Shown here: piece by piece, positions 1 to 41,032 of the stretch
Numbering within the stretch: the stretch's first letter is position 1
How the letters are laid out: each line of letters starts with the position of its first letter
Assembly (NCBI GenBank): GCA_902984215.1
Contig: CADWAF010005394.1
Location: 1-41,032 of the forward strand
Direction of reading: 5' to 3'
DNA length: 41,032 nucleotides
Source of the DNA: Willaertia magna
Lineage: Eukaryota; Heterolobosea; Eutetramitea; Acrasida; Naegleriidae
Notes under the pieces: generated by a model
What the model saw: only the letters and a program-made list of their open reading frames with translations
What the model was told of the DNA's origin: nothing
Databases searched by the model: none
Translations under genes and position numbers: made by a program

Positions 1-460
1 AAATTTGAATTTTTTTTTTAAAAATATTTTTTTATTTTTTAAAAAGCAGTATAAATTTATACTACTTTTGTTAATTTTTTATTCATTAAAATATTAGCAA
101 AAACAGTATAAATTTATACTGTTTTTTGTTTTTTGTTGAATAAAAAGAGTATAAATTTATACTCTTTTATTTTATTTTTAAAATTATAAAAACTGTATAA
201 ATTTATACTCTTTAAACTAAAATTTTTTATGCTCTTCACAAAAAATTGTAGTTAAAACAATAATAAACTTTCATAATTAAATTAAGCACATCTAAAACAG
301 TGTTTTAAAAAAAAAAGAAATTTTTGAAAAAAAGTTATTTTAAGATTGTTCTAAAAGATGTTTTATTGAAGTCTTTTTTGTTTTATTTTTGCATAAACAA
401 TCGGAAAACTGTATATAATTTTAAGAAATTTCACTATGGAACTGCTAAGATTAAAATATT
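1..460 (+). repeat. Left copy of the inverted terminal repeat
   Basis: Read left to right, this segment matches the reverse complement of 40620-40968 over most of its length. Matched landmarks, in order, are the AAATTTGAATTTTTT start, four palindromes, the string TTCTAAAAGAT, the string GGAAAACTGTATAT and the string ACTATGGAACTG. The left copy is longer because about 100 bases (roughly 248-350) have no counterpart on the right. Substitutions are scattered through the match, so these are diverged copies rather than a recent duplication or an assembly fold-back. No coding frame is visible. It may be the end of a mobile element, a dispersed subterminal repeat or the terminus of a linear molecule. 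Confidence 0.8.
48..208. repeat. Four spaced palindromes with a TATAAATTTATA core (left)
   Basis: The 14-base palindrome GTATAAATTTATAC occurs at 49-62, 106-119, 149-162 and 195-208, a spacing of 43-57 bases. The perfect self-complementarity extends further in individual copies: 22 bases at 102-123 and 26 bases at 143-168. The outer arm bases differ between copies (ACA/TGT in one, AAGA/TCTT in another) while staying complementary within each copy. This indicates selection or copying for the palindrome itself, as a hairpin or a dimeric protein-binding site. An array of TATA-like elements is an alternative. Confidence 0.85.
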
Positions 461-1520
461 ATTTTATATTAATAATTTACTAAACTAAAATAAAATTCTC
501 TCAACATCAAATTCTATAGCAACAATTTGCTTGTAAAAAAGAAGATATTTTAAAATTAAATGAATCAACTTAATTTTCTTATAAGAAAGGATATTTTTTA
601 ATATTTGAATAATTATTTAAAATAATTTTTTAAACTGAAAACATTATTTTTTATAATATACTTTTTTATAAGTGCCAAATAAATATTGATTTATTTATTT
701 TACTTTAATTTATCATCTATGAGACATTAAAATAAATATTGTGAAATTTTATTTTTAATATAATATATATCAAAGTTTACATGATAATGATAATATTTTT
801 GTATTATATATTATAAATATAATTTCAAACAAAGCTTCCTCTAAAGTTTTAAAAGTATTATTTTTTATTATTTTTACTAATAATTTATTAACTCTCTCTT
901 AATTTCTTTATTTAATGTTTTTATGTTTTGATAATTTGATAATTTAATTTTTAACAAAATTTATTATTACTTAAAGTTACTATAAATTTTCTTATATATC
1001 TTACTTCTTATTAGTTTAGAAAATGTTATTAAAAAGAGTAAATATAATATTAAAAAAGATACTTTTAATTTTTTTATTAATTTTAAATTTCACATCGATC
1101 TCATTATTTAAAAATAAATTAAAACTTTTTATTAAAATATACTTAATTTTTTATTTAATCTCTAATTTTTTTTTCTTTTTGTTTATCTTTATTTTTAATT
1201 TTCATACTATTTCCCAAAACTATAATAAACGCTTTGAGTTTTTTATTACAACTTTTTTTAAACTATTTTAAAATAGCAAAGTTTTAAACTTTTTTCAAAC
1301 TATTTTAAAATGGCAAAGTTTTAAACTCAATTTTAAAACTGGTAACCATAAATTTTTTTTTAAATCAATTTAAAACTTTATTAATCAATTTAACAAATAA
1401 AGCAAGCAAATTTAAAAATAAAAAAAATATTTTAAAATTAGTACAAATAAAAATAAAATAAAATCATCAATTTTAAAAAAAAATCAAAAAAAATCAAAAA
1501 AAATTAAAAAATAGTAATTT
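461..1520. other. AT-rich stretch, no recognisable gene
   Basis: This interval is dominated by A and T runs. An 82-codon open frame at 1023-1271 encodes almost only Leu, Ile, Phe, Asn and Lys and looks compositional. The only internal structure I see is the short tandem duplication at 1260-1327. The minus strand near 1000-1300 carries short protein-like runs broken by many stops and may be the tail of the decayed region that follows. Confidence 0.6.
1260..1327. repeat. 37-bp tandem duplication
   Basis: The 31-base stretch at 1260-1290 recurs at 1297-1327 with one difference (TAGCAAAG against TGGCAAAG), a period of 37 bases. It contains the palindromic string TATTTTAAAATA. It is a simple local duplication with no sign of coding use. 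Confidence 0.8.
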
Positions 1521-1529
1521 TAATTACTA

Positions 1530-2880
1530 TTGATACTTCAGTAAATATTAATAAAACAAAACATAAAAATCCTCCTGGTTATGTAAAAAGAATAAATATG
1601 AAGATAAATAATATAAATATAAATTTTAAAATTATCTAAAGAGGCTGGGCTTGTTGAGTTGTTTTATTTTTTTTGTGTTATTTTTGAAAAATTTTGGTAA
1701 ACTAATTTTTTTGGTTCCTTTTTTTTGTAATTGATTAATTTAAAAGTGTAAATATTTGCTTTAAGAGCATTTTTAAATATTAATGACATAAAAATCGCTA
1801 ATTTAATTTTGTAATTCATAAGAAAAAGTTATATTATTACTTTTTTTATTATAGAAAAAAATAGTTGTTTTTGAATTATTTTTAAATATATATTGATCTT
1901 GTCAATAGTGGTATTTGTAGTGGTTGTTATAGTAATGTTTATAGAAATTGTAGTTATTATATTATTTTTTTTAATATTGTCGCTTAAAAATATAAGATTT
2001 AAAAATTTATCAGTATTAAATTTTTAACTATTATTTATATTATTATTTATGCTTTTATTTGTAGTACTATTTGAAGTTTTATATAGTATTTTATTTTTAA
2101 AATCAACAAAAATCTTTAATTTTTCGTCTTTATAAAAAGATTAAGATATTATTAAAGTTGAAAGATTATTTTCAGTAATTAAAATAATAGTTTTAATAGA
2201 AAAAATAATATAATTATTTCATTAATTTGCAATTTCTTGTTATTATTTTTATTATTATTAAAACCATAATTATTTTTACTTAATTGTGTTTCTTTATATT
2301 TAGGTATATTTTTATTATTTGTATAGCTTTTAATAGTTTATTTACTTTTATTTAACTGAAGTTCATTATTTTTTTTATTTTTTTCATCTTCATCTTTCTC
2401 TTCTTTATCTTTATCTTTTTCATTTTTATTATCTTTACTATTTATTACACTTTTAACAATTTTTTTAAATAAACTCATAACAAAAATTTTATAATAAAAA
2501 TCTTCTAATTTAGTTTAAATTTTTTGAATGTTTGTTATTTATAAATTAAGTTTTTTAAATTGTAATCTTACATTTATAAATTTTTTACTAACAATATATT
2601 TAACATTATATAATTTTTTCAAAAACTCATTCTTCTTTCTAATTTTTTCCGCAACCTCATTTTTAAACTTTTTCTACTTCTTTACTTCTTTAATATTCAT
2701 AAAAGTAACCTTTGTATTTATGATTAAGCATTTATAGTTTATAAATTATTTAATGAGTTTTTATATTTAAATAAAACATTAAATTATAAATCTTATCCAT
2801 AAATAACATCCTTTCCTACAAACAATCAAATAAAAAAATGTCTAATTATTATTAATTAATAATAAATAGTATCTTTATCT
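1530..2880 (-). pseudogene. Decayed reading frame of unknown family
   Basis: On the minus strand one frame runs from about 2880 to 2179 with protein-like content, broken by about eight TAA and two TAG codons and no TGA. Stops that I placed are at 2674-2676, 2539-2541, 2515-2517, 2338-2340 and 2179-2181. Within it an ATG at 2478 opens a 46-codon piece starting MSLFKKIVKSVINSKD, followed by a Lys/Asp/Glu-rich run. Upstream is a CRKGCYLW string and a Lys-rich helix-like segment near 2540-2670. After 2179 the protein-like reading shifts frame and continues with further stops to about 1530. The pattern fits an old gene losing Gln codons to C-to-T change, probably belonging to the flanking element. 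I do not recognise the family. Confidence 0.5.
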
Positions 2881-3080
2881 AAATTAATATAAAAAGTATC
2901 ATAATTAATGATTTTTTTAAATTTAGTTTAATCAATTTTCTCTAAAATACAAAGTAATAACAAGTTATAATATAATTTGTTTTTAGTTATATGTATATAA
3001 ATATCTTATATTTTTTTATTTGTCAATACTTTTATTATTATTATCTTTTTTCTTTTCTTTTATTTGCTCTTTTATTGTTG

Positions 3081-3152
3081 ACTGTAGAATGGATTGTAGA
3101 GTAAATTATAGAGTGGCTATGAAGTAGATTATAAAATTAATTGTAAGATTGG
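3081..3152. repeat. 12-bp minisatellite inside the decayed region
   Basis: About six imperfect units of 11-14 bases follow one another; examples are ATTGTAGAGTAA and ATTATAGAGTGG. The period of about 12 equals four codons. On the minus strand the units and the following Lys-rich segment read as protein-like sequence with a single stop. This fits a short amino-acid repeat in a former coding region. Confidence 0.6.
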
Positions 3153-3446
3153 CTTAGAGGTTATTTTATAGTTATTTTTTTATCAATTTTTTTTCCTTAT
3201 TGATATCCTTATAATTGTTTTACTTGATGGTAGTTGATTTATGAGTATTTTTATTAAAGCTTAAATTAAAATAATAAAATTCTTCATTATTTTTTACTTT
3301 TTTTAATATTTCTTCTTTTTCTTCTTCTTTTTCTTCTTTTTATCGGGTTGACAAATATTAATATTTTTTATTATCATTTAGTTCAATTTTACTATTTTTA
3401 TTATATTTTATCTTCTTTCTTAGTCTTAACTACATTTTTTTTAAAT

Positions 3447-4520
3447 TCAAAATAAAAATAAAAAAAGAAATTTAATAAAAAAAAAAACATAAATAGAAAT
3501 TGTTTTATTATTTATTTTGGACAAATTAAGATTTAAAATCATTTTAATATATTTTGTATAACAATATTTTAGAGTTTGTTTTATAAATTTAATTATAAAT
3601 ACAATATCCTTCTTATCTTCCTTAATTTCTTTATAAACTGCATCTACTTTATTTTTATTTTGTTTAGTTTTTTCTTTTTTGATTATTAAGAAAGAATATG
3701 AATTAAAAATAAAAATTTTAATAATTTTAAAATAATAATTCAAATTTCTAAAAAAATAATTAGTTTTATTTTTTTTAAAAGTAATCTCATTAATTTTTAA
3801 GTTAATTTTGTTATTAATTTTATTAATCAATACAAAAATATCTTTAATATCATATTCCAAACAAACCTTTGCCTTATTTTTAGTATTAAGATACATTATT
3901 TTAAAAAATATCAATAACGCACAATTAAGTATAGATTCAATATATTTAGTAAATTTATTATCTTTTCTATTTTCAATTTTCTTTGCAATCTGATTGTTTA
4001 AAAAATTTATAATAATAAAACAACAATAACTATAATTATGAACAAACACTTTAAAATCAAATATAATACTAACCATTTCAAACTCTTTTTGAAACAACTA
4101 ATCAAAATATTATTTATATTATTAATACTAACAATTATTTCTATTTGTTTGCCTATATTAAATATTATAAACATAAGATAATCAATATATTAGAAATTTT
4201 TTAAATTTTATATTTTTTCTATTTGATATTTTATTATTATAATTTGTAAAAAAATTAAAAAAAGTGATAATACTTTTTTTATGTAAATGCTTTAATTTTT
4301 TTTAAGTTTTCCAATAATTATAAAAAATATAATTAAAAGTGGCGATGTTTGAAATTAAATATTTAATAATTCCACCTTTATTCATATAATCCACAAATCT
4401 TTCCAGATTTAAATCAAAATTAAAATATACATCAACAAATACTTCTTCTAATTGTTTAAAAAAAGACTTTGAAAAATTAGTTTCCTTTTTATTTATAATA
4501 TTTTCTTCTTTTTTGTACAC
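3447..4520 (-). pseudogene. Decayed minus-strand frame, possible Sec7/ARF-GEF-like remnant
   Basis: Two open pieces, 4302-4520 (72 codons) and 3447-4097 (216 codons), lie in the same minus-strand frame. Only a cluster of TAA/TAG codons and one TGA (about 4100-4304) separates them, so they look like one broken gene. The upstream piece contains a run reading VDVYFNFDLNLERFVDYMNK. It resembles the conserved N-terminal segment of large Sec7-family ARF exchange factors, where a Tyr-x-Asn-Tyr-Asp...Leu-Phe-Glu pattern is typical. That resemblance is from memory and short. The downstream piece is rich in Lys, Asn, Ile and Phe and is not recognised. No catalytic Sec7 domain is visible. Both pieces are more AT-rich than the central genes. 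Confidence 0.4.
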
Positions 4521-5140
4521 ACATATTAAATTTGTCTTTGAATAAATTTATAGTATTACAGAATCATTAAGGTTGTAAAAATGAGTTATTAATTTGTTGG
4601 GGTTTAAATAATTTTTGATTATTTATATAAATTTTTTCTTGTATAACCAAAAAAAAATTTTTTTAACTATATTTTAATCAGTTTCAGCAATTTTTTTGTT
4701 TTTTTTCTTTTTTTTTTAAATTTTTTACTTTTTGAAAATTTTTTTAATATAAGTTTTTTAACTTTTATTAAATTTTGGACAATAAAAATATTTTTTATAT
4801 TTTCATTATTATTGTCTTTTATAATTTTTTTTTATTATTTTCTTCAAGTACATTTTTATAATTTTTTTATTATTCTTTGTTGTGCTTTTTTTTTATTGAT
4901 TATTTTTGTTGTAAAAGTTTTGTTTATTATTATTTGTTTAATTGTAGTAATTTTTTTTTAGTAAATATATTAATTTTTGTTATACTTTGTTTATTTATTT
5001 TATCTAAAATCTTAAAGGTGTTTATTTTTTGGGAATAAATAATAATTTATTAGAAAATACTTTAATATTAAAAAACTAGTTTTATTATTTGTAGGCATTT
5101 TTTTATTTATTTTTTAATTATTTTTTAATACCTCAACTAT

Positions 5141-5497
5141 CTATTAATAACCTTCTTAATAAAATATATATTATCAGCAATTTTGACAAAAACTAGAAAT
5201 TTTAAGTTAAAAATAATTTTATAAAAATAAATATCAATTTACACATCTTTTTCATTATAATTGAAAAAACTATTTTAATTTTTTTAATATAATATATTAG
5301 CAATAATAAATAAGGAGTTAAGATAGTTTTTTTAATTATAATAAAAAAGATTTAAAGTATTACTATAATTTAAAAAATAAATTAAATAATATTTGTTTAT
5401 AAAAATTATATTTTATTTTTATTTTTCTATTAATAATCTTCCTAATAAGTACACCATAGTAGTATTAATGAAAACTAAATATTTTAAGTTAAAAATA
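5141..5497. repeat. Pair of diverged ~70-bp direct repeats
   Basis: Copies at 5141-5215 and 5427-5497 share CTATTAATAA at one end and TTTTAAGTTAAAAATA at the other, with a recognisable but diverged middle. Between them, AAAAAACTATTTTAA (near 5267) and its near-complement TTAAGATAGTTTTTT (near 5318) could pair as a 15-bp stem with one mismatch. This is a modest remnant of a duplicated unit. Confidence 0.6.
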
Positions 5498-6850
5498 TGT
5501 CAATAAAAATTATAAAAAAATAAAAACCCTCAAAAATCAAAAATTATATAAAACCTTAATATTAATCAAATTAAAAAATATTCTCATTTTTATAATTTTT
5601 TATACAAAAAATTTCATCATTTTTGTAATTTTTTATATTAAACTTAAACTTATATTTATATTAAACTTAAACTCAAAATTTAATTTAAATATTAATTTAT
5701 TATTATTTAATTATTTACAATAATTATAAACTTTACAATAACAACAATAAGAATCTTTAAATGAAATTAATGTTGTGATTAATAAATTAATTAATATTTA
5801 TAATCAAAATAATAATTTATTACATAATTTATTAATTACAAACAATTAAAACAATATTAAAATCTTTAATATTTTAATTAATTTTATTATAATAATTATA
5901 ATAAAAAATTTATAAAATAGTTTATAAAATAATAATAATAATAATATTACAAAAAAATACTATTATTAATAATAATTTTTCTATAAGATTTTTAAATATA
6001 AATTTATTTAATTAAAATTTATAAAATTTAAATAATTTTTATAATAGATTTACTATTTTAATAAAATTAAAACACTCTATTTTATTAAATTTAAACAAAA
6101 ATTATTAAAATTTTAATATTACAAAATTTATAAATACTTTATTTATTGATTTAAATAATATTTTAATTAATAATAATAATTTTAATAATATTATAATTAA
6201 TTTATTAAATATAACTTCATTAAAATTTATTAATAATAATGAATTTAAATTAAATTTTTTAATGATTTTAAATTATATTTAAAATTTTAAAAAACTTTAC
6301 ATTTAATTGATTTTTTAATTTTTTTTAAATTATGTAAAGAATTTATTGTAAATAATAATTTATTATTAAATAATAATTCCTAATAATAAATTTTTTAATT
6401 GTATAATAGTAATTTTTTAACTATATAATTATAAAAAATAAAAAATAAAAATAAATCTTTTTTTTAATTTTTCTTTAATATTATTAATATTTTTAATAAA
6501 TTTAATATCTTTCTGTAATATATATTAATAATAAAATAATAATTATTTAATAATTTTCATCCTTTATTAAGAATTATATTCTTTATTTTTAATTATTTCT
6601 TATAATTTATTTTTTATTTTATTAAAATAAAAAATGTAATTATTAATTATTTTTTTATAATTTTTTTTCACTTAAAAATTTTTATTTTTTAATTTAATTA
6701 TAATATTTAAATTTAATTACAACGTTTATATTTAAATATAATGTTTATAATTAAATATAATATTAATAAATTAAACATAATATTTAAAAAAAATTATTAA
6801 AGTTTATAATAATTTTTTATTTTAATAATTATTATTAAAATTATAATTAA

Positions 6851-7108
6851 GTCTTAGATAATATAATTAATTTTATTAATAATTTAAAAGTTAAAGTTGA
6901 CAAAGATTATAATTTAAATATTAATTTAAATAGATTACTATATAATTTAAATATTAAAATTAATTTTAATAATCAAATTATAAAAGTTATAATATTTAAT
7001 TATTTTAATTTAAAAGTAATTGATAATAATAATAATAATAGTTATTTTTGTAATAAATTTAATATTAATGATTTAAAAAAATTAATTGATAATAATAATA
7101 GAAATTAA
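6851..7108 (+). pseudogene. Asn-rich open stretch lacking a start codon
   Basis: An 85-codon run between a TAA at 6848 and a TAA at 7106 contains no ATG near its beginning. It reads as an Asn/Ile/Lys/Leu-rich peptide with Asp, Val, Tyr and one Cys (SYFCNKFN near the end) and a run of five Asn. Such residues are unexpected in pure A/T noise, and the run stands out from its surroundings. A similar 57-codon open run lies at 6109-6282. I take these as fragments of decayed coding sequence, with chance as the alternative. Confidence 0.3.
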
Positions 7109-8721
7109 AAGAAATATAAAAAAAATTAATAAATTTTATAATTATTGTAAACTTATATTTTTATATATTTATATTTTTGTATTTTTGTATTTTGTATTAA
7201 TATTATATATTTATATATAATTTATTATTGTTTTTAATTTATTTTTTTTTATATTTATATTATTGTAATTTAATTAATTTTTGTAGTACTTTAAATTTAT
7301 AATTTTAATTATTTTTTATTTTTGTTTAAATTTTTATAATATTTATAATAATTTTTATTATTATATTGATTTTTGTATACAAATATTAATAAATAAATAA
7401 GTTACAATATAATAGTTCAGTAATTTTTATAAATATTTACAAAAAAAATAAATAAAAATAATTAACTATATTATAATTTTTTATTTATCAGTATTTTATT
7501 ATACAAAGACTAAAAATAATAATTATAAATTCATATTTACTTAATAAAATAAACATAAGCTCATGTTTATTATACTTAAACTTATAATAACTATTAAATT
7601 TTTTTAATTTTTTTATTATTTACATTAATATTAAAGTAAACATATTATAATTTATTTTTATATTAACATTTTAATACATAATAATCTAATAGAATAAAAA
7701 TAAATTTATAGTTACTATATTTAATATTATGAGCTCATTATTATTATATTTGGATTTTTAATAATTAATATAATTTATTTAATATTATATATATTATAAT
7801 TTTTTATTTATTAATATTTTATTATATAAAAACCAAATAAAACTTTATTAAATTTATATTAACTTTCATATTTATTTTTAACAACCTTTAAATTTTTTTA
7901 ATTTATATTTATAAATTTTACTTAATATAATAATAACTCTATTAAAAATTATCATTTTTATATTATTATCTCCTTTTAATTTTTTATTTAATTTATTTTT
8001 TATCTTTTTTTTAATAAATAAACATAAATATATAAAATCTTTTTTTAATAATCAAAGTTTTTTTTAAAATATATATATATATTTAATATTATATTTAATA
8101 TATAATAATATTTTTAGTTAATTTATTTTATTATAATTATTAATTAAATTAACCTTATTTAAATCAAAATCTTTCTTTAATTTATTAATATTTATTAATA
8201 TTTTTTTAATATTTTTTTTTTTATTATTTAGTTTAACAAAAGTAAATAATAATAAAAAAGAAAAGAAAATATTAAAAAAAAATTGATTTAATAATAAAAA
8301 AATTAAATTAAATAATTTATTACTTTTATTATTTATAAAATAATCTTTTTTAAATCTTTTTTTTTAAATTTTTATTTATTTAATTATAAAATTTGAAAAA
8401 ATAATCAATAAAATTATTTGAAATATTAAAAAAAAAATTTAATATTTTAATTTCTTTGTTTGTTTATTAAAATAATTAAAAAATTAATAAAGTTATATTA
8501 TTTAATAATAAAGTTGAAATAATGTTTGAAAAATTAATAATTAATAATGTTTAAATATTTTTTTAAAATTAATTATTTTTTTACAATTTTTAATAAAATA
8601 TTATAATAAAAGATATAATAAAAATAATTATTATCAATATTAATAATTATTAATAAAATTTATTATAATAAAATAATATATTTTATTGTTAATATTAAAT
8701 ATATTATGAATATTTATTATA

Positions 8722-8844
8722 TTTAAATAATTTATTAATAAATATTTTAATATATTTTATTAAAAATAATTCTATTTTTTAATAAAAAAATAATTTTAAA
8801 TAATTTATTAATAAATATTTTAATATATTTTATTAAAAATAATT
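8722..8844. repeat. Perfect 50-bp direct repeat in the AT desert
   Basis: The 50 bases at 8722-8771 recur without change at 8795-8844, giving a 73-base period. In a tract with this much random A/T drift, perfect identity over 50 bases implies a recent local duplication. Confidence 0.8.
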
Positions 8845-15487: not shown

Positions 15488-15667
15488 ATCCTATCACTAG
15501 TTTTTTTCTATTAATTTCTATTGGAACAGAACCTTGCCATGAACTTTAAAATTGATGTCTATAAACCAGCATGAAATTGGCAAACCCAAAAGCCAATTAT
15601 AATCGCCAACCAATGTTGTGGAACCACATTTCATCTTTCTAACAAAATGGCAACACCATAAACTTTC

Positions 15668-27282: not shown

Positions 27283-27416
27283 TTTTTATTTTAATAATAA
27301 AAGATTGACAAGTGAATTTAAAGTTTTGTAAAAAAACATGTAAAGTCAAAAATTGCCAGACAGAACCCTTCTTTTATTTACAGATTTTGGGTACAATTGT
27401 GACACAATCATAGTAT

Positions 27417-27627: not shown

Positions 27628-28352
27628 GTTTTTTTAATTGTTTTTTATATTTAGTTGTTTAAAAATTAGTTTTTATATTTAAACTAAATTAAACCAAAGT
27701 CACAACCATAGACTGGAAGAGGTTTTGTAATTTTCTTGGAAGGAATACTTAGTCTTTTGTCAGACAATAGAAGTCATTTGCTAATCCTTTAAGTAAACTT
27801 TGCTTTTTGGTCAACTACCTTTCTTAATGCTTTTAAACTGGCGGGGAGTTGCAGCCCTAAACTGCGCATCAACCAAACTAATCACCTGAAGGGATTTTGT
27901 TTTTAAAAATCTCTCAACTACCTCCTTCTTATTGCAGACAAAGGATTGCATTACGTGCAGTATAAGAGTGAAAAAGGCTCACGTTTTGTTTTCACTTATT
28001 TTTGTAGTTTGCTTGAGTTCTATTAGAATGCTGAAAGGAAGCATTACGTGTTCCAGAAAAGACAGAAATTAAGTCTTTAGCGAGCTGTGCTTTGATTGGG
28101 GATTCTTTGCGTTGTTGATTGAATAAAAATAACTTATTCACCGGTGAATTCCAATCGGCCGTACAAAAAAATTAAATTTTAATCGATTAACTGAAAAAAA
28201 AAGGTTTAACACATTTTTTTTAAAAATTATATCCCTCCACAACCACTCTCTCCTGTAGCGTTATCTAATTGTTACCTTTGGTAATATCCTAAAGACTAGA
28301 CTAACCTATTTTTTTACCGATACAATACTAATCAGAGGTCCATTAAATTATA
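27628..28352. other. 725-bp divergent intergenic region
   Basis: This region separates the 53-residue gene (minus) from the MYB gene (plus). It includes a relatively G/C-bearing patch at about 27840-28160 and A/T runs near both starts. The MYB gene therefore has a long upstream region. I see no tRNA, no open frame of note and no repeat. Confidence 0.4.
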
Positions 28353-30269: not shown

Positions 30270-30578
30270 AATAATTTATTAAGTTCAATAGTTTTTTATT
30301 ATAATTTTTGTAGAGCTGATTTATTCTTTTGGCAATAAAAACAAATTTATAAATGTTAACAATTCCAGAGAGTAAAATTGATCAATTAATCAGTGTTGCT
30401 TTGCATTCCGATTCAATCCACAACAGCTTATTGTTTTCTTCCATCTTATTTTGGCAAACTTGCAATAAATAACATCTCCTCCATACTTTGGCTCTGCTCC
30501 TTTATTCACTTTGTAAAAAAAAAATTTAAAACCTTTCCCCTTCTCCGTTATTCACACTTTTAAAAAAAATATAACAAG
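30270..30578. other. Intergenic, V-ATPase promoter region
   Basis: 309 bases lie between the MYB stop and the V-ATPase start. They contain A/T runs and a C/T-rich patch at 30470-30560 just upstream of the ATG. No RNA gene or repeat is visible. Confidence 0.4.
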
Positions 30579-32408
30579 ATGATGAGAAGAGATACCCAAG
30601 AGAGTCAATATGGTGATATTTTGTCCGTCTCAGGTCCAGTCGTCGTAGCTGAAAAGATGGAAGGAGCAGCTATGTATGAATTAGTTCGTGTTGGTACTCA
30701 AGAATTAGTTGGTGAAATCATTCGTTTAGAAGGAGATACAGCAACAATTCAAGTTTACGAAGAAACATCAGGATTAACAGTTGGAGATCCTGTATTAAGA
30801 ACTGGACAACCATTATCAGTTGCATTAGGTCCAGGTATCATGGGTAGTATTTTCGACGGTATCCAACGTCCATTAGAAGTTATCTATAAACAATGTAATG
30901 ATATTTATATTCCTAGAGGTATTAACGTAAATTCTTTAGATATGAATAAACAATGGCATTTCAATCCAACAAACTTTGAAGTTGGAGATAAAATAACTGG
31001 AGGTGATATTTTTGGAGAAGTTGAAGAAAACAATTTAATTAATCATAGAATTTTATTACATCCACATGCTATGGGTGAAATTACTTATATCGCTCCAGAA
31101 GGTAATTATACTTTAGAAGATACTGTTTTAGAAATTGAATTTAATGGTATTAAAAGATCATTTACTATGGTTCAACATTGGCCTGTACGTCAACCTCGTC
31201 CTGTTATTGAGAAATTAGCAGGTGATTATCCTCTTTTAACTGGACAACGTGTTTTAGACGCTGTTTTCCCTTCTGTTCAAGGTGGTACTTGTGCAATTCC
31301 AGGTGCTTTTGGTTGTGGTAAAACTGTTATTTCCCAAGCAATTTCTAAATTCTCTAATTCTGATGCTATTATTTATGTTGGTTGTGGTGAAAGAGGTAAT
31401 GAAATGGCTGAAGTACTTATGGAATTCCCTGAATTAACTGTTACTAATAAGAAGACTGGTAAAGAAGAAAATATTATGAACAGAACTTGTTTAGTTGCTA
31501 ATACATCAAATATGCCTGTCGCTGCTAGAGAAGCTTCAATTTATACTGGTATTACACTTTCCGAATATTTCAGAGATATGGGTTTAGATGTTTCTATGAT
31601 GGCTGACTCTACTTCTCGTTGGGCTGAAGCTTTAAGAGAAATTTCTGGTCGTTTAGCTGAGATGCCTGCTGATTCAGGTTATCCTGCATATTTAGGTGCT
31701 CGTTTAGCTTCTTTCTACGAACGTGCTGGTAAAGTTCGTTGTATTGGTAATCCAGGTAGAACTGGTAGTATTACTGTTGTCGGAGCTGTTTCTCCACCTG
31801 GTGGTGACTTTTCTGATCCAGTTACTGCATCTACTTTAGCTATTGTTCAAGTCTTTTGGGGTTTAGATAAGAAATTAGCTCAAAGAAAGCACTTTCCTTC
31901 AGTCAATTGGTTGTTATCTTATTCTAAATATATGAAGAGTTTAGAACCTTTCTATGAAAAGGTAGATCCTGAATTTATTCGTTTAAGAACTGTTATGAGT
32001 ACTATATTGCAACAAGAAGAAGATTTAACTGAAATTGTCCAATTAGTTGGTAAGGATTCTCTCCCAGAAAATGATAAGGTTACATTAGAAGTTGCTAAAC
32101 TTTTAAGAGAAGATTTCTTACAACAAAACTCTTTCACTACTTATGACAAATATTGTCCTTTCTTCAAGACTATTTTGATGTTACGTAACTTTATTAAATT
32201 CTATGAAGAAGCTCAAAAGGCTGTTCAAGAATCAGGTGCAGGTAAGGTTACATGGAGTACAATCAAACAAGCAATGCCAGATATCCTTTATAAATTATCT
32301 TCACAAAAGTTTATTGAACCAAGTGAAGGAGAAGAAAAAGTTAAGAAGGGATTAAATGATCTCCATACTGAAATTCTTAATTCTTTCAAGAACTTAGACG
32401 AAGAGTAA
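30579..32408 (+). CDS. V-type proton ATPase catalytic subunit A
   Basis: A 609-residue intronless frame, the usual length for this subunit (about 610-620). It has a beta-barrel N-terminus ([19 protein letters not shown]), the non-homologous insert typical of V-ATPase A (about 115-200), and the Walker A motif GAFGCGKT at 242-249. The signature [12 protein letters not shown] and [11 protein letters not shown] follow. The protein is the ATP-hydrolysing subunit of the cytosolic V1 sector and drives proton pumping into endosomes, contractile vacuoles and lysosomes. Codon use here is the least AT-biased in the window (more GGT, GCT, CGT and TTC), as expected for a highly expressed gene. Two adjacent Met codons begin the frame. 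It converges with the RCC1-like gene, 81 bases apart. Confidence 0.97.
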
Positions 32409-32489
32409 ATAACACATTTTTGTACCACCACAATAAATTAAGTTTTGTAAATATTTAATTCTTTATTTATTTACTAATTTTGTAATCTG

Positions 32490-33479
32490 TTAAAATTGCT
32501 GCAGCAGCAATAAATTAACATGTTTCTTTTGAGGATTGAAATTGAGTTTAGTAAAACTATCCAAGTAATATACAGGGTAAATGTCATCAAGGTACTCTTT
32601 GCAATTCTTACTTTCAAATATTTTGTTAGATCTGTTTCCAGAAAGTCCTGTGAAATACAAATTGTTATCCTTAGTTCTAACGATATTATAATAACAAAAT
32701 GAGCTAAAAACAGATTTGATATGTGGAATTGTTAGCATTACTTTGGTGAATGTTGTCACGTCTTCACTATTGTAACCTAAGCCCAAACAACCATCAATAT
32801 TGCATCCTGTGCCAAACAATTCATTAAATTCATTAATAATTAATGTTCCAGAGCTAAAGCAAGAGATTTTTTTAACTTTAAAAGATAAATTAACTTTTGT
32901 AATTTCTGTTATCTTTTTTTGTTCATTCCCTAAACCCATTTGACCACTTCCATTACTTCCAATTCCATAAATATCTCCGTATTTATCTAGAATTATCACA
33001 TGATTATTTCCACATTGTAAATCCATTAAATTTAAATTATTATCAATTACATTAAACTCTTCTTCTTTATAAGTATTTTGTAAATATAAATTATTTTGTC
33101 CAATCACATAAATATTATCACTCAAAGTAACTACAATTAATAAATTATACCCTCCTCTAATCCATTTAATTTTGTCACAAATACAATGTTCTAATTTAGT
33201 AAATTTCTTTACAAATAACTCGTTTGTTAAAAAGCCAGAATAATAAATTTCATTTTCATCATTCATAAAGAACGAAGAGGAAGTGCCACATGTTATCTTT
33301 TCAATCATTTTCCAATTTCCAACCACTTTGCTAAATTCATTATTCATCAATGAGTGATCATTTCCTAATTGCCCATTAGTGTTACTTCCATAACCTATTA
33401 TTTCATTATCACTTGTACACAAAATGAAATGTGAAAAACCATAAGCTATTGCTTTGATTTCAGTATTTGATGACAACAT
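32490..33479 (-). CDS. RCC1-repeat protein
   Basis: A 329-residue frame with repeated blades of an RCC1 beta-propeller: YGSNTNGQLGN near residue 30, GIGSNGSGQMGLGN near the middle, GTGCNIDGCLGLGYN after it, and a degenerate LYFTGLSGN blade at the end. RCC1 itself is a Ran exchange factor, but many RCC1-repeat proteins are not; nothing here shows which. Only about five or six blades are visible, so it is short for a complete seven-blade propeller. The frame stays open for 17 codons upstream of the first ATG with propeller-like sequence (GNFKIEETKSIPITL) but has no ATG there, so the true N-terminus may be missing or in an undetected exon. Confidence 0.8.
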   Translation of the reverse strand: MLSSNTEIKAIAYGFSHFILCTSDNEIIGYGSNTNGQLGNDHSLMNNEFSKVVGNWKMIEKITCGTSSSFFMNDENEIYYSGFLTNELFVKKFTKLEHCICDKIKWIRGGYNLLIVVTLSDNIYVIGQNNLYLQNTYKEEEFNVIDNNLNLMDLQCGNNHVIILDKYGDIYGIGSNGSGQMGLGNEQKKITEITKVNLSFKVKKISCFSSGTLIINEFNELFGTGCNIDGCLGLGYNSEDVTTFTKVMLTIPHIKSVFSSFCYYNIVRTKDNNLYFTGLSGNRSNKIFESKNCKEYLDDIYPVYYLDSFTKLNFNPQKKHVNLLLLQQF

Positions 33480-33617
33480 GAGTGTTATTGGAATAGACTT
33501 TGTTTCTTCAATTTTAAAATTTCCATTTTTTTAAATAATTAAAATAATTTTTACAAAGATTTTTTAATAATAATTTTACACTCTATAGTTTTCTTAATTG
33601 ACTGATTCTAAAATCCT

Positions 33618-34514
33618 TTACATCAAAATGCAACAACCATCCTTTCCTGTATTTGCACTATTACCACCTCCAGTGTTACCTCCACCACCTGTCTTAGCTC
33701 CCTTTGAAAAACGTACTTGTAAAGCCTTTTGGAAGATTTCATCAACACCCTTTCTCGTACGAGCAGATGTTTCAATGTAACATGTTGCACCAATTTCTTT
33801 AGCTAATTTTTCACCTTCTTCTGCTGTTAGTAAATGTTCTCCGTTTTTCTCTAATTTTTGTACAAAATCGTTATCATCTCTTAAATCGGCCTTGGTTGCT
33901 ACTAAAACAATAGGAGTACCTTTAGAATATTCATTTAATTCTTTTAACCACTTCTCTTTAACGTTATCATATGATGATTTACTACTAATTGAATAACAAA
34001 CAATAAAAACATTAGTATTTGGATAAGAAAGATATCTAAGTCTATCATATTCCTATAATAATATTTAAAATTAATTATCGGATTCGGATCCAAAAAATTA
34101 AATAATACCTACTTCTTGACCTGCAGTATCCCATAAACTTAACCTAACAACTTGATCGTTAAATTTTACATTAGTATCATAGCTAGAAGATAAATAAAAA
34201 TCTGTAAATTTTTTTGGGTCTTAAAAATGGGAAAAACTTACTTATCAAAAACAGTCTTTTTAATTTTTGTTATTTAACAACATGTTGAAAAAACACTTAC
34301 TGGAATATAATCTTCCGGAAATTCATTGTTGACATAGACCATGAGTAAACAAGTTTTACCTGATGGGTTAGGAAGAGAGAAAAAGAAGAATAAATTTCGT
34401 TATATTTAATATATTAATGGCGTGCATGAAATTAATTAACTGTTTCAGAAATTTTTACTTACCAACAGCACCATCTCCAACAGCTACTACTTTGCATGTT
34501 TCTTTGTTTGACAT
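33618..34514 (-). CDS. Rac/Rho-family small GTPase (five exons)
   Basis: Five exons on the minus strand: 34463-34514, 34301-34359, 34242-34255, 34113-34182 and 33618-34052. Together they give 209 residues. The G-boxes are complete: P-loop GDGAVGKT (13-20), switch I effector PTVFDNY with Thr38, DTAGQE at 60-65, TKADL and ETSA. The PTVFDNY effector and the DLRDDNDFVQKL insert-region sequence place it in the Rho family, closest in appearance to Rac. The C-terminus is a Gly/Asn-rich linker ending in GCCILM, so CILM is a prenylation box that would anchor it to membranes. Exon 3 is only 14 bases and encodes the core of switch I. Rho GTPases control actin and pair naturally with PI3K signalling. Confidence 0.93.
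34242..34255 (-). other. 14-bp micro-exon of the Rho GTPase
   Basis: This exon encodes TVFD and the first two bases of the Asn codon. It lies between a 45-base and a 59-base intron with good GTAAGT donors. Skipping it would remove the switch I threonine and shift the frame. The assignment is forced by the invariant PTVFDNY motif. Confidence 0.9.
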
Positions 34515-34838
34515 TTTTCAGTTGCTCTATTTTTTTTATGTTTCTTTCCCTGTCACTGTCATTGTCCATCAAAAAGTGTTGGCCGATTGAAATTAAGGAA
34601 CTTGGGTAACAATTCGCCAGTACCAAAATGCAAACCAAAACAAACAAAAATTGGTGTTATTTATTCCAACTTTAATTTATGTCTTTTCATTTCCTACCAA
34701 TGACATGTATATTCCTACCAACTATAAAGGATGTTGTTTGAGGGAATTACTTCACACCAAGAAAAAAAATTTAAACTCTTCCCTCGCCAACACAAAACAG
34801 CCGGCTCTACTTATTCTGAAAGGAAATCTACAGAAAAA

Positions 34839-35603
34839 ATGATTATGCCTTTTATGAAGAGAAGGTTTTACACGGCTACGGAAGTTTCAGAACATAATTT
34901 TAAGGATGATTGTTGGGTGTCGTTCATGGGAAAGGTATATAACGTTACCAGTCTAATTATTGAACATAAAGGTAAGAGTATTAATTTAATGCTTTCGGGA
35001 TAAACTAAGGGAGTTATTGTACTAGATTGTAAATTAATCGATCCTATAGTACTAAATGGGGGAAGAGACATTACTCATTGGTTTGATAAAGAGACTGGGG
35101 ATATAAGGAAATGGATTGACCCAATAACAAATGAAAGATGTTACTACACACCAATGGGTAGATTTCTTCACATTCCCTTACCTTCTTATGAGCCAGAAAC
35201 TACAAAAGAACCAGTACCAACAACGCCTTGGTGGAAAGATGATGGTAAATATATGATAGGAAAACTATCTAAAAAAACAAGGATTATTAGAATTGTTAAC
35301 ACTTTAACTCATGACGAGCATGAACTAGAGGTTTGTTCTGAAGAGACTTTAAAAGAAATATTAGACAGATATTTGCATTTTAATAGTCACGCTGGCAGCT
35401 ACACTTGGAAAAGATTGGGAGAGGACTTGGATATGGGTAAGTTTACTCTTTTTAATTTAATTAAAAGAAAAAAATAAGAGAAAACTTTGGAAGAAAATGG
35501 GATTCGGGATGAAGATAAGGAATTCGAAGAGCTTGGAATAAACGATAATTTTTACAGACCTGCTCTTCACTTGTACTATAATGATGATTTGACTATTGGA
35601 TAG
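34839..35603 (+). CDS. CYB5D1-like cytochrome b5 domain protein (ciliary)
   Basis: Three exons, 34839-34971, 35014-35436 and 35479-35603, with two 42-base introns, give 226 residues. Human CYB5D1 is 228 by my recollection. Matching blocks include RRFYTATEVSEHN near the start, WVSFMGKVYNVTSL, DITHWFD, DIRKWIDPIT, TPMGRFLHIP, TRIIRIVNTLTHDEH, YLHFNSHAGSYTWK, TLEENGIRDED and LHLYYNDDLT at the end. CYB5D1 proteins are associated with the axoneme and radial-spoke function in ciliated organisms, so this gene implies a flagellated stage. The canonical HPGG haem motif is not present, but the later His (DITHWF) is. The frame is open upstream to an ATG at 34731; the start at 34839 is preferred by family length. 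Confidence 0.92.
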
Positions 35604-35689
35604 AAAACGTTAAAAATAAAGATTGTTTACGTTAGTTACTTTCACTTCGCGCCAAAAAATTTTGCTTAATTAAAAGCAATAACAAATAA

Positions 35690-36723
35690 ATGCAACGAAA
35701 AAAAAGATATGGGCATATATTGTTTCAAGACGAAAGAATAGAATCAAAAGAAATAAGAGAGGATCAGAAAGAAGAGGATATAAGGGAAAACGATGGGTAT
35801 TGTACGTATTGTAATTCATTATTTACTGAAAATAATTTTTTGTAGGGAATTACTCAGAGGTTTCCTTAGAAAATTCTGAAGATGATTTAAATGCACAAGA
35901 ATATCCAGAGCTTATAGATGAACTAAGGAGGCAATTAGCTGATTTAGTTAACGGAGAAGGAGAGGAAAATGATAATAACAACTCTGAAGAAAATAAATTT
36001 GTAGAAGAAAACAATAATGAAGAGAGTGGGGTGAATGGATATTTAAAACAATACCAAGATTTACTGGAGAAAAGACATCCAAAAATTGGAAAATCTCCCT
36101 CTAAAGAAGAAGAAACAGAATTTGAAAAACATACCATGGAGATAGATCAAAGACTTAATAAACTTCATGAGGCAATTTTACAACAAGAGCCAAAAAAACG
36201 TGTATTACAAAGGAAAATATCGAATAACAGAAGGACAGTAACAACATCTGGAGGGGAGAAAGGAAGTACAAGTTCTGTGTATATAGCAAACAACAAACCT
36301 TACTCCAATGATCCTGAAAAACAAAGACTTAGATATTTAGTAGCTAAATTTCAAGGAGAGTATGAAAATGCAAGGGCTAGAGAGAAAAAGGCAATAGAAA
36401 TTGCTTCAGTTTTTCATAAACAAATGTTGAGCTATGAGCAACAAGTTAATTTACTAAGGAAAAGTAATTTGGATAAAGAGAGGCAAGTTGTTGAATTAAG
36501 AGAAATGATTGATGAATTGAATGGTGCTTTAGAAAGAGCAAATGTTGGAAATGAAACTCAAAACTTAACTAAAAATTTAATTGACAGAATGATGAATAAT
36601 TATTCTTCAATTGTAGAGTCCCTTACCTCAAAGAAGGAGCTTATAGACGTTATTGAAAAACAAAAAGAAGAATTACAACAACATTCCAAATTATTAAAAA
36701 AACTAACTACCAACCAACAATAA
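35690..36723 (+). CDS. Coiled-coil protein of unknown function
   Basis: Two exons, 35690-35801 and 35846-36723, separated by a 44-base intron (GTACGT donor, TTTTTTGTAG acceptor), give 329 residues. The phase fits only this donor; the neighbouring GTATTG would shift the frame. The N-terminal third is acidic and Glu/Asn-rich. Heptad-like charged helices dominate afterwards (about residues 200-325), with KQRLRYLVAKFQGEYENARA, REKKAIEIASVFHKQ and LRKSNLDKERQVVELREM. The C-terminus is Lys/Gln-rich. It looks like a structural or scaffold coiled coil. It lies 86 bases downstream of the CYB5D1 gene in the same direction, so a flagellar role is possible, but no domain proves it. Confidence 0.8.
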
Positions 36724-36876
36724 AAAGTGTTGCATGCATAGCTAGGCCAAATAACAATTATTACTTTTCACTATCCTCTTTACTTTTCTAACCATTCGTA
36801 TCCTATGTGTGATTTTCAACAAGCTATAAATGTAATTTCGTATTTACAAAAACGTTAAAAAAAATACAAGAAAAAG

Positions 36877-38853
36877 ATGAGAGCCTTTGATGATTATGAA
36901 TTATATGAGAATGGTAGAAGGTTTTTGATTGTACCCAAAGTAGTACAACAATCTTCTACATCATCTACATCTACCGGTACATCAGGACAAAGTGAAGTTA
37001 AAAGAAAAGTACCTGATTATGAACATTTATGTCTTATTGATAGAGATACTCAATTAATATCTAAATTATCTATTGATCCAAATAATGAAGTAGTCAAAAC
37101 CACTTTATTTAAAAAGATGAGAACAATGACTCGTATCTTTGGTATTATTGGATCCATTAAATTACTTTCCGGTACCTTTTTAGTTGTTTTATTAGAAAGA
37201 GAATATATAGGAATGATTAATAAACATAAAATCTATAAAATTAAAAAGATTCAATTTATTCCATTTAAACCTTCTAAATTTAAAATTCAAACAGAAGAAC
37301 AAAAAGAAAAAGAAATTCAATACATTGAAATGATGAATAAAGTAATTGTAGAAGATAATAGTTTTTATTTTAGTTATACTTTAGATTTAACAAATAGATT
37401 TCAACGTACATTTTCAACAAATGAAGGATTAGATAATATTAATTTACAAGGTTGGAAGAATGCACATCCAAACTATTTTTGGAATAAATATTTATTACAA
37501 CAATTTATTTCTAAACAAATGGATGGATTTATTATTCCAATGATACGTGGTATTGTTGAAATGAAGAATATAGTTGTAAATAATATTAGTTTTTTATTTG
37601 GTATTATTTCTAGAACTAGTTCTAAACGTGCTGGTGCTAGATATATTATGAGAGGTTCTGATGAAAAGGGTCATGTTGCTAATTTTGTTGAAAGTGAACA
37701 ATTTATTTATTATAATTCTATTTTAACTAGTTTCTTACAAATTAGAGGTTCAATTCCTTTAATTTGGTCTCAAGAAGCTAATTTAAAATATACTCCTGAA
37801 ATTAAATTCTTAACTGATAAAGAAAAACAATTAAAAGCATTTCATAATCATTTTAATTCAATTTTAAAAGAATATCAAAATAATATTACTGCAATTAATT
37901 TATGTAAAAAGACTGGTCAAGAAAGTAGATTAAGTGAATTATATACAAATTATGTTAAAAATGTTAATCAAGTTAATTATGTTCATTTTGATTTTCATAA
38001 TGAATGTAAGAATCATGATTATACAAAATTATACACAATGTTTTTACCTCAAATTGTTAAAAGTATGAAAGATATTAAATTCTTTTCAGTTTCTTTAGGA
38101 AATAATAATTCTACTTGGATTCCAGATGACAATAATGAATTTAATACAATTGGTAAAACAATGTCTACTCCATTATTTGATACAAATGAATGGGAAGATG
38201 ATGAAGATTCTATTAATAATCCATATAGTGATAATAATAACAGATCATTAAGGGTACAACAACAAAAAAGTATGAATAGTAATAGTAGTACCAGTTTATT
38301 AGATTTTGGAGATGTTAATATTCCAAATTTAACAAATAATGTATCCCAACCTAATTTATTGAACTTTGTAGATGATGATGATCCATTTATGACAAACACT
38401 AATAATGTTAAAGTATTAGAAAATCAAAATGGTACTTTCCGTGTCAATTGTATTGATTGTTGTGATAGAACTAATTATATTGAAACATTTATTGCAAAAT
38501 ATTTATTAATTGAACAGTTGTATAGATTATCTATTATTAAAAAAAGAGATGTTAAATTAGAAGAATTAGGTAATTTAGAACAAGAATTTAGACAATTTTG
38601 GTTAGAAAATGGTGATAAAATATCAATACTCTACAGTGGCACCGGAGCTTTAAAATTTCATAAAAGTGTTCAAGGTTTATTAACTGATGGTGTTAATTCT
38701 GCAAAGAGATATTTCCTTAATAATTTTAAAGATACTGAAAGACAAAAATCTATTAATTTAGTTTTAGGTTTATTAGATGTTAATAATCAACAAGAAGAAG
38801 AGGAAGAATCTAATAATCCAGCTGAAATTGTAAAAGATTTGTTAATATTTTAA
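36877..38853 (+). CDS. Sac-domain phosphoinositide phosphatase
   Basis: A 658-residue intronless frame. The Sac N-terminal region (about residues 10-130) includes FGIIGSIKLLSGTFLVVLLE. The central domain has NRFQRTFS, WNKYLL, IPMIRGIVEMKN, ISRTSSKRAGARYIMRGSDEKG and GSIPLIWSQEA. The catalytic CX5R motif is CIDCCDRTN, with Cys525 and Arg531; most relatives have CxDCLDRTN. The family removes phosphates from PtdIns(4)P, PtdIns(3)P or PtdIns(3,5)P2. Unlike Sac1, no transmembrane pair follows the domain: the tail is an acidic Gln/Glu/Asn run. A roughly 90-residue Asn/Asp/Ser-rich insert (about 417-509) sits immediately before the catalytic loop. This is a soluble Sac protein, with Fig4- or Sac3-like identity uncertain. 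Confidence 0.93.
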   Translation: MRAFDDYELYENGRRFLIVPKVVQQSSTSSTSTGTSGQSEVKRKVPDYEHLCLIDRDTQLISKLSIDPNNEVVKTTLFKKMRTMTRIFGIIGSIKLLSGTFLVVLLEREYIGMINKHKIYKIKKIQFIPFKPSKFKIQTEEQKEKEIQYIEMMNKVIVEDNSFYFSYTLDLTNRFQRTFSTNEGLDNINLQGWKNAHPNYFWNKYLLQQFISKQMDGFIIPMIRGIVEMKNIVVNNISFLFGIISRTSSKRAGARYIMRGSDEKGHVANFVESEQFIYYNSILTSFLQIRGSIPLIWSQEANLKYTPEIKFLTDKEKQLKAFHNHFNSILKEYQNNITAINLCKKTGQESRLSELYTNYVKNVNQVNYVHFDFHNECKNHDYTKLYTMFLPQIVKSMKDIKFFSVSLGNNNSTWIPDDNNEFNTIGKTMSTPLFDTNEWEDDEDSINNPYSDNNNRSLRVQQQKSMNSNSSTSLLDFGDVNIPNLTNNVSQPNLLNFVDDDDPFMTNTNNVKVLENQNGTFRVNCIDCCDRTNYIETFIAKYLLIEQLYRLSIIKKRDVKLEELGNLEQEFRQFWLENGDKISILYSGTGALKFHKSVQGLLTDGVNSAKRYFLNNFKDTERQKSINLVLGLLDVNNQQEEEEESNNPAEIVKDLLIF

Positions 38854-40619
38854 ATAAATGTAGTTTTTTTAACATTTTAAATGTTAATATTATTACAATT
38901 TTTATTTTTTAATTAAAGTTTTTAAAGTTTTATTTTCAATTTTTTTATTAATAAAATGTCATTTACTTTAATTGTAGTTTTATTTTACATTTTATTTTTT
39001 AATTATAAATATTTTTTACTTTTTCCTTTAATTTACTATTTATTACGTTTATTTTATTTTGAACTTTTAAATATTTATTAATATAAAAATATATTTCATA
39101 TTTTATAACAACTAATAACTTATTTAAATTATTACAACTTTTTTTTAATTAAATATACATTCTTTAATTATTATATTTTTATATTTTTAATATAAATATA
39201 TATCTACAAAATATATTGTAAAATAAATAAAAAATATAACATTTAATAACTATACAATAAAAACTCAATTTGCTTATAAATTATATTTATATTATCAAAT
39301 ATAAAATAAGTTCTAATAAAATTATAATTTATAAATAAAATATTGTTAATTTTTATTAAAAGTAAAAAAGTAGAAATATTTTATATAAATATAATAAATA
39401 AATTAAAAATTTTATTATTAATAAAATTATTACAAAAATATTAATATTTTAAAAAACTTTTATTTTTTTAACAATTTCATTATAATTTTTAAAAAAATTA
39501 TAAATTATTTTCTCTTATTTTATATAAATTATTATTTTATAAAAATTATTAATTTTTTATTTTTTTATTTATAATAATTAATAAATTTTATACAAACTTA
39601 TACTAAATTTATAAAACATAATAATAATCTAATTATTTATAATTATTAAATAATATAATAATATAAATATTTTATATAAGTATTGTTTAATAATTTTATA
39701 ATATTTAAATCTAATAAAATATTTATTAAAGATTAGTATTTTAATTTAATAAATAAAGAAATAACTTTTTAATAAAATACAAGCTATCAGTTTAATTAAA
39801 TTTAATAAATAAAAAAAGTTACTTTAATAAATATTAGAATTGTTTTAATAAAATTAATAATTTAGAATTTTTTTAAAAATATTTAATTCATTTTTTAAAA
39901 AAAATTAATATAAATTTTTATAACTTTTTATTTTAAATATATTTATCTTAGATTAAAAGTTTTATTTTTAATATTTTAAAACAAAAATTAATAATAATAA
40001 AAAATAATAATTTTTTTAATTAAAAAATATATTTAATTTTATTTTAAAATTATAATGGTTAAAATAAAAAAAATAATAATTTTTTTAATTATTAATTTTA
40101 TATTAATTTTTAATATTTTTTAATAATAATAATAAATAAGTAACAAAATTATTATTTAATAAAAAAACATTTTAATTTATTAAATTTTATATAATTATTT
40201 TATTTACAGATTTTATAAATTATAGTTTATTTAAAGTTTAAATATGATTAATAAATAAATAATATTTAAAAAATAATAAATTTATTATTAAAATATTAAA
40301 AATTTAATCAAAAAAATAATATTATTAAAGGTTTATTTTTTGAAAATAATAATAATTTATATACAGAAAAATATTAAAATTATTAAAAAAAAAAGTAATA
40401 TAATTATAAGATAATTATTAAAATAATTATTTTTAAATAATATTAAATTATTTTTTTTAATAATTAAAATTTTAAAATTTTTTTAAATCATTTTATAAAT
40501 ATTAAAAAATATAATTTATTATTTGTATTTATAAAATAAAATAAATATTTTTTAATTTAAAAATTTTATTTTTTAAGATTATTAAAAGTTAATATTATAT
40601 TTTTATATTAAATTTTAAT
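38854..40619. other. Right AT-rich flank, no gene
   Basis: About 1.8 kb of A/T runs with only scattered C and G begins right after the Sac stop codon. No open frame of interest, RNA gene or insertion is recognisable. A short direct repeat (AAAATAATAATTTTTTTAATT at about 40001 and 40070) is the only internal structure. The sharp composition step at the Sac 3' end mirrors the step at 10.9 kb on the left. Confidence 0.7.
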
Positions 40620-40968
40620 ATTTTATTATACTTAACAGTTCCATAGTAACTATATTTAAAATCATATACAGTTTTCCAATTATTTATGTAAAAATAGAAC
40701 AAAAAAGTTTAATAAAATATCTTTTAGAACAGGTTTTTGTAAAAAGTATAAAAATTTTTAGCTCAAAGAGTATAAATTTATATAGTTTTTGTAATTTTAA
40801 AAAAAAAAAGAGTATAAATTTATACTTTTTAAAGTCAACAAAAATAATAAAAGCAATATAAATTTATATTGCTTTTGCTAATATTTTGATAAAAAATTAA
40901 CAAAAGCAATATAAATTTATATTGTTTTTTAAAAAATAAAAAAATATTTTTAAAAAAAATTCAAATTT
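40620..40968 (-). repeat. Right copy of the inverted terminal repeat
   Basis: In reverse complement this segment aligns with 1-460, starting at the AAATTTGAATTTTTT landmark (reading inward from 40968) and ending at the ACTATGGAACTG landmark near 40636-40647. It lacks the ~100-base segment found at about 248-350 of the left copy. About 64 bases of A/T sequence lie outside it to the window end. Divergence between the copies is spread through the sequence. Confidence 0.8.
40771..40924. repeat. Four spaced palindromes with a TATAAATTTATA core (right)
   Basis: Cores lie at 40771-40782, 40811-40826 (16-base palindrome), 40849-40876 (28-base perfect palindrome) and 40907-40924 (18-base). Two copies carry AA/TT where the left copies have AG/CT next to the core: GCAATATA...TATATTGC here, ACAGTATA...TATACTGT there. 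Each change is matched on the opposite arm, so the palindromic form is kept while the sequence drifts. Confidence 0.85.
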
Positions 40969-41032
40969 AAATTTTTTTTTTATTAAATAATTTTTTAAAT
41001 TTTTTTTAGTTTCTTTTTATTTATATGATTTG

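What the first reader, a model, noticed from the sequence alone, without database searches (positions are those of the whole stretch)
1..41032. Inverted copies of one ~350-460 bp repeat bound the whole window
The left end (1-460) and right end (40620-40968) are diverged inverted copies of the same sequence, with matching landmarks in the same order. Everything else, including 28 kb of ordinary host genes, lies between. Three readings compete. The window may be an island between two members of a dispersed repeat family. It may be one very large element with terminal inverted repeats that has taken up host genes. Or it may be a linear minichromosome or episome with inverted ends. Ordinary housekeeping genes in the middle and divergence between the ends favour the first reading, but the placement at both extremes is striking.
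Basis: partly seen in the sequence, partly recalled or inferred. Interest (0 to 1): 0.75.

Follow-up and report, generated by a model that had tools for sequence, protein, structure and literature searches.

The report
Contig ending in two transposon copies
The matching inverted ends are the cut-off tails of two copies of one ordinary jumping-gene family, where the genome assembly happened to break, so the window is neither a giant mobile element nor a tiny chromosome.

Summary
In detail: window 1-449 and 40631-41032 are inverted copies of one sequence (86% over 245 bases, 277 bits; best of 200 shuffles 54). The reading changes, because the window is an entire contig (C859) of a 19.24 Mb, 894-contig draft genome. 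The repeat is the 3' end of a TIR DNA transposon about 6.6 kb long. Its sharp edge...CACTATGGAACTGCTAAG, faces INTO the window at both ends, so both element bodies lie outside. Apparently complete copies elsewhere carry the inverse motif at their other end, and 6 of 7 have a 5-base target duplication (2 of 42 cross pairs); most hold relics of a DNA-methylase-like gene and an unclassified gene. All 18 termini found near contig starts, and all 23 near contig ends of known length, have the body off the contig; two other contigs are bounded as the window is. The assembly most likely broke inside transposon copies. Giant element and linear minichromosome are rejected; two independent insertions of a dispersed family fits. 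Ordinary as a finding; the element family is possibly new. In passing, window 450-5400 shows extreme C-to-T and G-to-A decay.

The parts
1..449 (+). 3' end of transposon copy A, cut at the contig start; its body lies to the left, outside the window
   Evidence: sharp edge at 449; other copies continue into a shared body on the position-1 side
432..449 (+). terminal inverted repeat motif CACTATGGAACTGCTAAG of copy A, facing inward
450..454 (+). presumed half of the 5-base target-site duplication (ATTAA); the partner half is not in the window
   Evidence: 5-base TSD shown on other copies; bases read; inferred here
48..209 (.). 16-base palindrome AGTATAAATTTATACT at 48-63, 105-120 and 148-163 (exact) and 194-209 (one mismatch); four related sites with 0-2 mismatches in copy B at 40769-40923: subterminal repeats of the element
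   Evidence: similar palindromes near the element's 5' end
450..5400 (+). AT-decayed relative (14.4% GC) of gene-bearing sequence on C192 and C835, beside which or into which copy A inserted; homology to C192 begins within 4 bases of the element edge
5400..10900 (.). AT desert, 6.6% GC overall
10937..38853 (.). ordinary host gene block (28.6% GC): 1516-aa membrane-type protein, Ariadne-type IBR ubiquitin ligase, metallophosphatase, IFRD, 2OG oxygenase, PI3-kinase, Myb, V-ATPase A, RCC1-like, cytochrome b5 fragment, Sac-domain phosphatase
   Evidence: 'membrane type' of the 1516-aa ORF is judged from its sequence, it has no Pfam match
38900..40625 (.). AT desert, about 6% GC
40626..40630 (-). 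presumed half of the target-site duplication of copy B (TATAA in element orientation)
   Evidence: inferred
40631..41032 (-). 3' end of transposon copy B, cut at the contig end; its body lies to the right, outside the window; lacks about 100 bases against copy A

Best explanation
The window is one contig of a fragmented draft genome. Each end lies within the last 400-450 bases of a separate copy of one dispersed TIR DNA transposon, about 6.6 kb long when full length. The two copies inserted independently, in opposite orientations, about 40 kb apart, each with its 3' end toward the window. The assembly stopped inside each copy, so both contig ends show the same sequence, inverted. Shown: copies, edge, termini, TSD of other copies, orientation, assembly polarity. 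Inferred: that repetitiveness rather than some other property of the element stopped the assembler, that A and B were separate events, and that the element moved by cut-and-paste with the unclassified protein as transposase.
For: Window = contig C859, 1-41032. 42 matches of at least 250 bits: the window's two plus 40 elsewhere in 37 other contigs; only 40 of 136 candidates were scored, so a lower bound. Long shared bodies on the position-1 side, e.g. C604 against C415 77% over 3060, and C604 against C389 in blocks of 2626, 1771 and 1565 (76-80%). Conserved terminus in 33 of 36 lined-up edges; L015 has a deletion in it, L010 breaks off early, L027's contig ends first; 5 of 39 matching pieces that stop before position 420 were dropped. 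Inverse motif at the other end in C604 (twice), C389, C636, C52, C78, C56, and degraded in C343. 5-base TSD in 6 of 7 apparently complete copies, 2 of 42 cross pairs. Terminus motif with up to 3 mismatches: 154 in the genome, 27 for the pattern read backwards. Of 98 termini with up to 2 mismatches, 18 lie within 600 bases of a contig start and all 18 have the body off the contig (2.7 expected at random in either orientation); of the 61 on contigs of known length, 23 lie within 600 bases of the contig end, all body-off. C794 and C411 are bounded at both ends as C859 is. C192 runs on, without the element, past the point where copy A sits. A window protein (P0001, IFRD) is listed on a contig of 409514 bases in the protein database.
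Against: No raw reads or longer assembly could be searched, so the junctions at 1 and 41032 were not crossed directly. The two window copies have only one end each, so their own TSD cannot be checked. One of 7 apparently complete copies (C343) has no TSD. The 20 contig lengths were fetched for minus-strand termini by choice, so the right-end count is partly selected; the left-end count is not. C636 has a 3' end that runs off the contig the other way, with the inner edge outward; it is not among the 98 because its terminus is cut off. Copies are 74-96% identical to the left copy, so it is not fully clear why an assembler stops 1 to about 560 bases inside; AT-rich palindromes may contribute.
Confidence: 0.95

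Rival explanations
1. One very large mobile element with terminal inverted repeats that has taken up 28 kb of host genes: the window itself is the element.
For: Inverted copies at both ends; giant TIR elements with cargo are known in eukaryotes, for example the 180-kb Teratorn (PMC5601938, seen only in a search listing).
Against: The defined termini (CTAAG edge) face inward, at 449 and 40631, so the ends of such an element would point the wrong way. Apparently complete copies elsewhere are 0.5-6.7 kb. The gene block was not searched for in other contigs.
Confidence: 0.02
2. Linear minichromosome or episome with inverted terminal repeats.
For: Repeat at both physical ends of the assembled sequence.
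Against: In C604, C389, C415, C566, C114 and others the same sequence continues for kilobases outward. The window's last 64 bases are also element sequence. A window protein is listed on a 409514-base contig. 38 contigs, the window among them, end in this way, 35 of them at one end only as far as lengths are known.
Confidence: 0.01
3. Composite mobility: copies A and B together could move the 41 kb between them.
For: Inverted pair of the same element, as in bacterial composite transposons (recalled).
Against: A and B are 14-17% diverged, so not a recent pair. Inverted neighbours are expected when a family leaves about 100 termini in 19 Mb. Whether the gene block has a second copy was not searched.
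Confidence: 0.02

Closest known systems
TIR (cut-and-paste) DNA transposons with 5-base TSDs: hAT5 group and Transib
   Same: Short TIRs, 5-base TSD, dispersed copies, internally deleted derivatives. hAT families with 5-base TSDs are mentioned in a passage of PMC12730594; the 5 bases of Transib are recalled.
   Different: Termini CTTAG...CTAAG, not the 5'-CA..TG-3' that a passage of PMC12730594 gives for most of the CMCT clade, which includes Transib. The candidate transposase matches no Pfam family.
Methyltransferase-bearing eukaryotic DNA transposons (Mariner-2_PGv, Mariner-1_OLpv of large viruses)
   Same: A transposon that also encodes a DNA methyltransferase, seen in passages of PMC3627910.
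   Different: Those are Tc/mariner elements with an endonuclease; here a 5-base TSD, an N6_N4-type methylase match (PF01555) and an unclassified partner gene.
KDZ and other DNA transposons that carry a TET/JBP dioxygenase gene
   Same: DNA-modifying enzyme within a DNA transposon, seen in passages of PMC12730594.
   Different: Methylase rather than dioxygenase; TSD 5 bases rather than the 8 of Zisupton.
Assembly fragmentation at transposable elements
   Same: Contig fragmentation at interspersed repeats, described in passages of PMC7757076.
   Different: None in kind; here the element is AT-rich and carries palindromes.

Membership tests
TIR DNA transposon | inverted terminal repeats at both ends of one element | tested here: met
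   About 17-base inverse motifs at both ends of C604, C389, C78 and C56, degraded in C343, with 1-4 mismatches in C797 and C317
TIR DNA transposon | target-site duplication of fixed length | tested here: met
   5 bases in 6 of 7 apparently complete copies; 2 of 42 cross pairs; other lengths from 2 to 9 at most 2 of 7
TIR DNA transposon | many dispersed copies plus internally deleted forms | tested here: met
   short forms of 528, 685 and 3050 bases with both ends
TIR DNA transposon | DDE/DDD transposase | tested here: inconclusive
   Invariant acidic positions in the alignment of six sequences of the partner protein, but no Pfam family, one weak PDB match judged chance (E 0.29) and a poor model (pLDDT 44)
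Transib / CMCT clade | 5'-CA..TG-3' termini | tested here: not met
   Termini CTTAG..CTAAG or T-for-C variants
hAT5 | hAT transposase domains | tested here: inconclusive
   Pfam scans of the element ORF pieces and of a diverged relative show none, but the body copies seen are decayed
DIRS or LTR retrotransposon | reverse transcriptase inside the element | tested here: not met
   None of 80 RVT_1 matches lies in C604:37947-44516 or C389:1701-8399; one below the cut-off lies at C162:2560-2910, upstream of a 3' end in that contig, not examined
Polinton or virophage-like element | 6-base TSD (recalled); relatives in viral contigs | tested here: not met
   TSD is 5 bases; no relative of the partner protein in IMG/VR contigs in two single-protein scans that find close relatives only
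Giant TIR element equal to the window | termini face outward at the window's extremes | tested here: not met
   They face inward, at 449 and 40631
Linear minichromosome | the sequence ends at the repeat | tested here: not met
   Other copies continue outward for kilobases; reads at the window's own ends are not available, and telomere repeats were not searched for

The most novel reading that the evidence does not exclude
The element family is a so far unnamed superfamily of eukaryotic TIR transposons with a 5-base TSD. Its two recognised genes point outward from the centre: an unclassified putative transposase, with only six relatives found among 5.8 billion proteins at that search's sensitivity, and an N6/N4-type DNA methylase that travels with it, perhaps to mark or protect its own palindromic subterminal sites.
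Probability: 0.3. Interest if true: 0.45.

Novelty: new member of a known kind. Interest (0 to 1): 0.2.

Why it matters
It removes a tempting but wrong reading (giant element or minichromosome) and gives the cause: contigs of this draft often stop inside one transposon family, so inverted repeats at contig ends are expected. The family itself is worth a classification: in 2013 the authors of PMC3627910 wrote that, to their knowledge, methyltransferases in transposons had not been reported before (passage); what has been reported since was only lightly searched here.

Tried and rejected
Giant TIR element, minichromosome and composite element: rejected or left unlikely as above. DIRS-like retrotransposon: my first idea when the methylase appeared; dropped for lack of reverse transcriptase in the complete copies and because of the TSD. 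LTR: dropped because the two ends of one element carry inverted, not direct, motifs. Joining C858 to C859: C858 also ends in a 3' terminus with the body outward, so the two are not the two ends of one element. Matching the window's single TSD halves to other contig ends: not attempted, since 5 AT-rich bases match too easily. Fold search: not run, because the model had mean pLDDT 44. Naming the host species: not achieved; the rRNA search (RF01960) did not complete, and the protein look-ups returned no species names. That the host is a eukaryote follows from the genes.

Full report
WHAT IS THERE. The two ends of the window are inverted copies of one sequence: 86% over 245 bases and 83% over a further block of 117, with about 100 bases missing from the right copy. 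The best score, 277 bits, compares with at most 53.6 in 200 shuffles of the right end and at most 56.3 in 200 random pieces of the window's AT deserts. The genes between are ordinary host genes.

THE WINDOW IS A CONTIG. The window is contig C859, 1-41032, of a genome of 19240052 bases in 894 contigs. 'Both extremes' therefore means both ends of an assembly contig. Of the contigs whose length I listed, none is shorter than 10104 bases, as if shorter ones had been left out (inference).

THE REPEAT IS THE TAIL OF A TRANSPOSON. One search lists 42 matches of at least 250 bits: the window's two and 40 more in 37 other contigs, a lower bound since 40 of 136 candidates were scored. Several copies share long flanking sequence on the side of position 1. 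C604 and C415 are alike over 3060 bases (77%), and C604, C389, C566, C114, C317, C56 and C424 over roughly 1-4 kb. On the other side similarity mostly stops at a sharp edge. In 33 of 36 lined-up edges the sequence ends in ...CACTATGGAACTGCTAAG or a close variant, followed by differing bases (L015 has a deletion in the motif, L010 breaks off earlier, L027's contig ends first; 5 of 39 matching pieces that stop before position 420 were not lined up).

TWO ENDS AND A TARGET DUPLICATION. The inverse, CTTAGCAGTTCCATAGT or a variant, sits where the shared body begins in C604, C389 and C636, and also in C52, C78, C56 and, degraded, C343. C604:37947-44516 (6570 bases) and C389:1701-8399 (6699) have both ends; forms of 3050, 685 and 528 bases are shorter. 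In 6 of 7 apparently complete copies the 5 bases before one end equal the 5 after the other; the seventh, C343, does not match. Cross pairings match in 2 of 42, and no other length from 2 to 9 exceeds 2 of 7. These are the hallmarks of a TIR DNA transposon. No body copy that I saw has both genes open: most gene relics hold stops. One gene codes for a protein with no Pfam match, whose six relatives (P0003-P0008) carry no informative name; the other has a piece matching the N6_N4 methylase family, at E 0.0045 in L023, below the curated cut-off, and at 4.1e-6, just over the cut-off, in a diverged relative. The two relics lie inside the same pair of termini in C604, C389, C797 and C317, pointing outward.

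WHY BOTH WINDOW ENDS LOOK ALIKE. In the window the termini are at 449 (facing right) and 40631 (facing left). The bodies are thus off the window at both sides. The genome holds 154 terminus motifs with up to 3 mismatches, against 27 for the same pattern read backwards. Of the 98 with up to 2 mismatches, 18 lie within 600 bases of a contig start, where 2.7 are expected; all 18 have the body off the contig. Of the 61 on contigs of known length, 23 lie within 600 bases of the contig end, again all body-off; 20 of those lengths were fetched for minus-strand termini, so this half is partly selected. One copy, in C636, runs off its contig the other way round; its terminus is cut off and it is not among the 98. 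Breaks fall 1 to about 560 bases inside the element. C794 and C411 are bounded on both sides in the same way as the window. Interspersed repeats such as transposons as a cause of contig fragmentation are described in PMC7757076 (passages).

INSERTION SITE. The left copy abuts a relative of sequence on C192: homology between window and C192 begins within 4 bases of the element edge, and C192 runs on there without the element. The same comparison shows strong decay of the window copy: 55.6% of C read T and 57.8% of G read A, with each other change at 0.4-3.3%. Against C835 the bias is the same but weaker: 45.5% and 49.7%, with A-to-G at 5.7% and T-to-C at 4.4%.

VERDICT. Two insertions of a dispersed TIR transposon, made to look special by where the assembly stopped. 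Host species and transposon superfamily remain unnamed: the rRNA search did not complete, the candidate transposase has no Pfam family and no credible PDB relative, and its model is poor. Paper searches did not turn up this family, but they were few, keyword-based, and the library is partial.

Noticed in passing
window 450-5400 against L030 (C192:9001-16982) and L031 (C835): A decayed relative of gene-bearing sequence: relative to C192, 55.6% of 615 C read T and 57.8% of 538 G read A, while other changes are 0.4-3.3%, with no clear next-base preference (CA .58, CT .54, CC .58, CG .63). RIP-like hypermutation or unrepaired deamination; the raw ratio of about 19:1 fits the roughly 5% GC of the deserts. 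Weaker against C835.
   Followed up: partly
window 5400-10900 and 38900-40630: Long AT deserts of about 6% GC between gene block and transposon ends.
   Followed up: no
C604, C389, C797, C317; diverged relatives in C715, C662, C430, C259 and elsewhere: A DNA-methylase-like gene and an unclassified gene recur on the same contigs in this element and in more distant relatives in this genome.
   Followed up: partly
genome G000, 80 RVT_1 matches: Reverse transcriptase genes are common, six with open frames over 800 aa: possibly active or recent retrotransposons besides this family.
   Followed up: no
window 17247-19222: The Ariadne-type ligase is split over two open frames, probably by a short intron near 18500-18540.
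   Followed up: no
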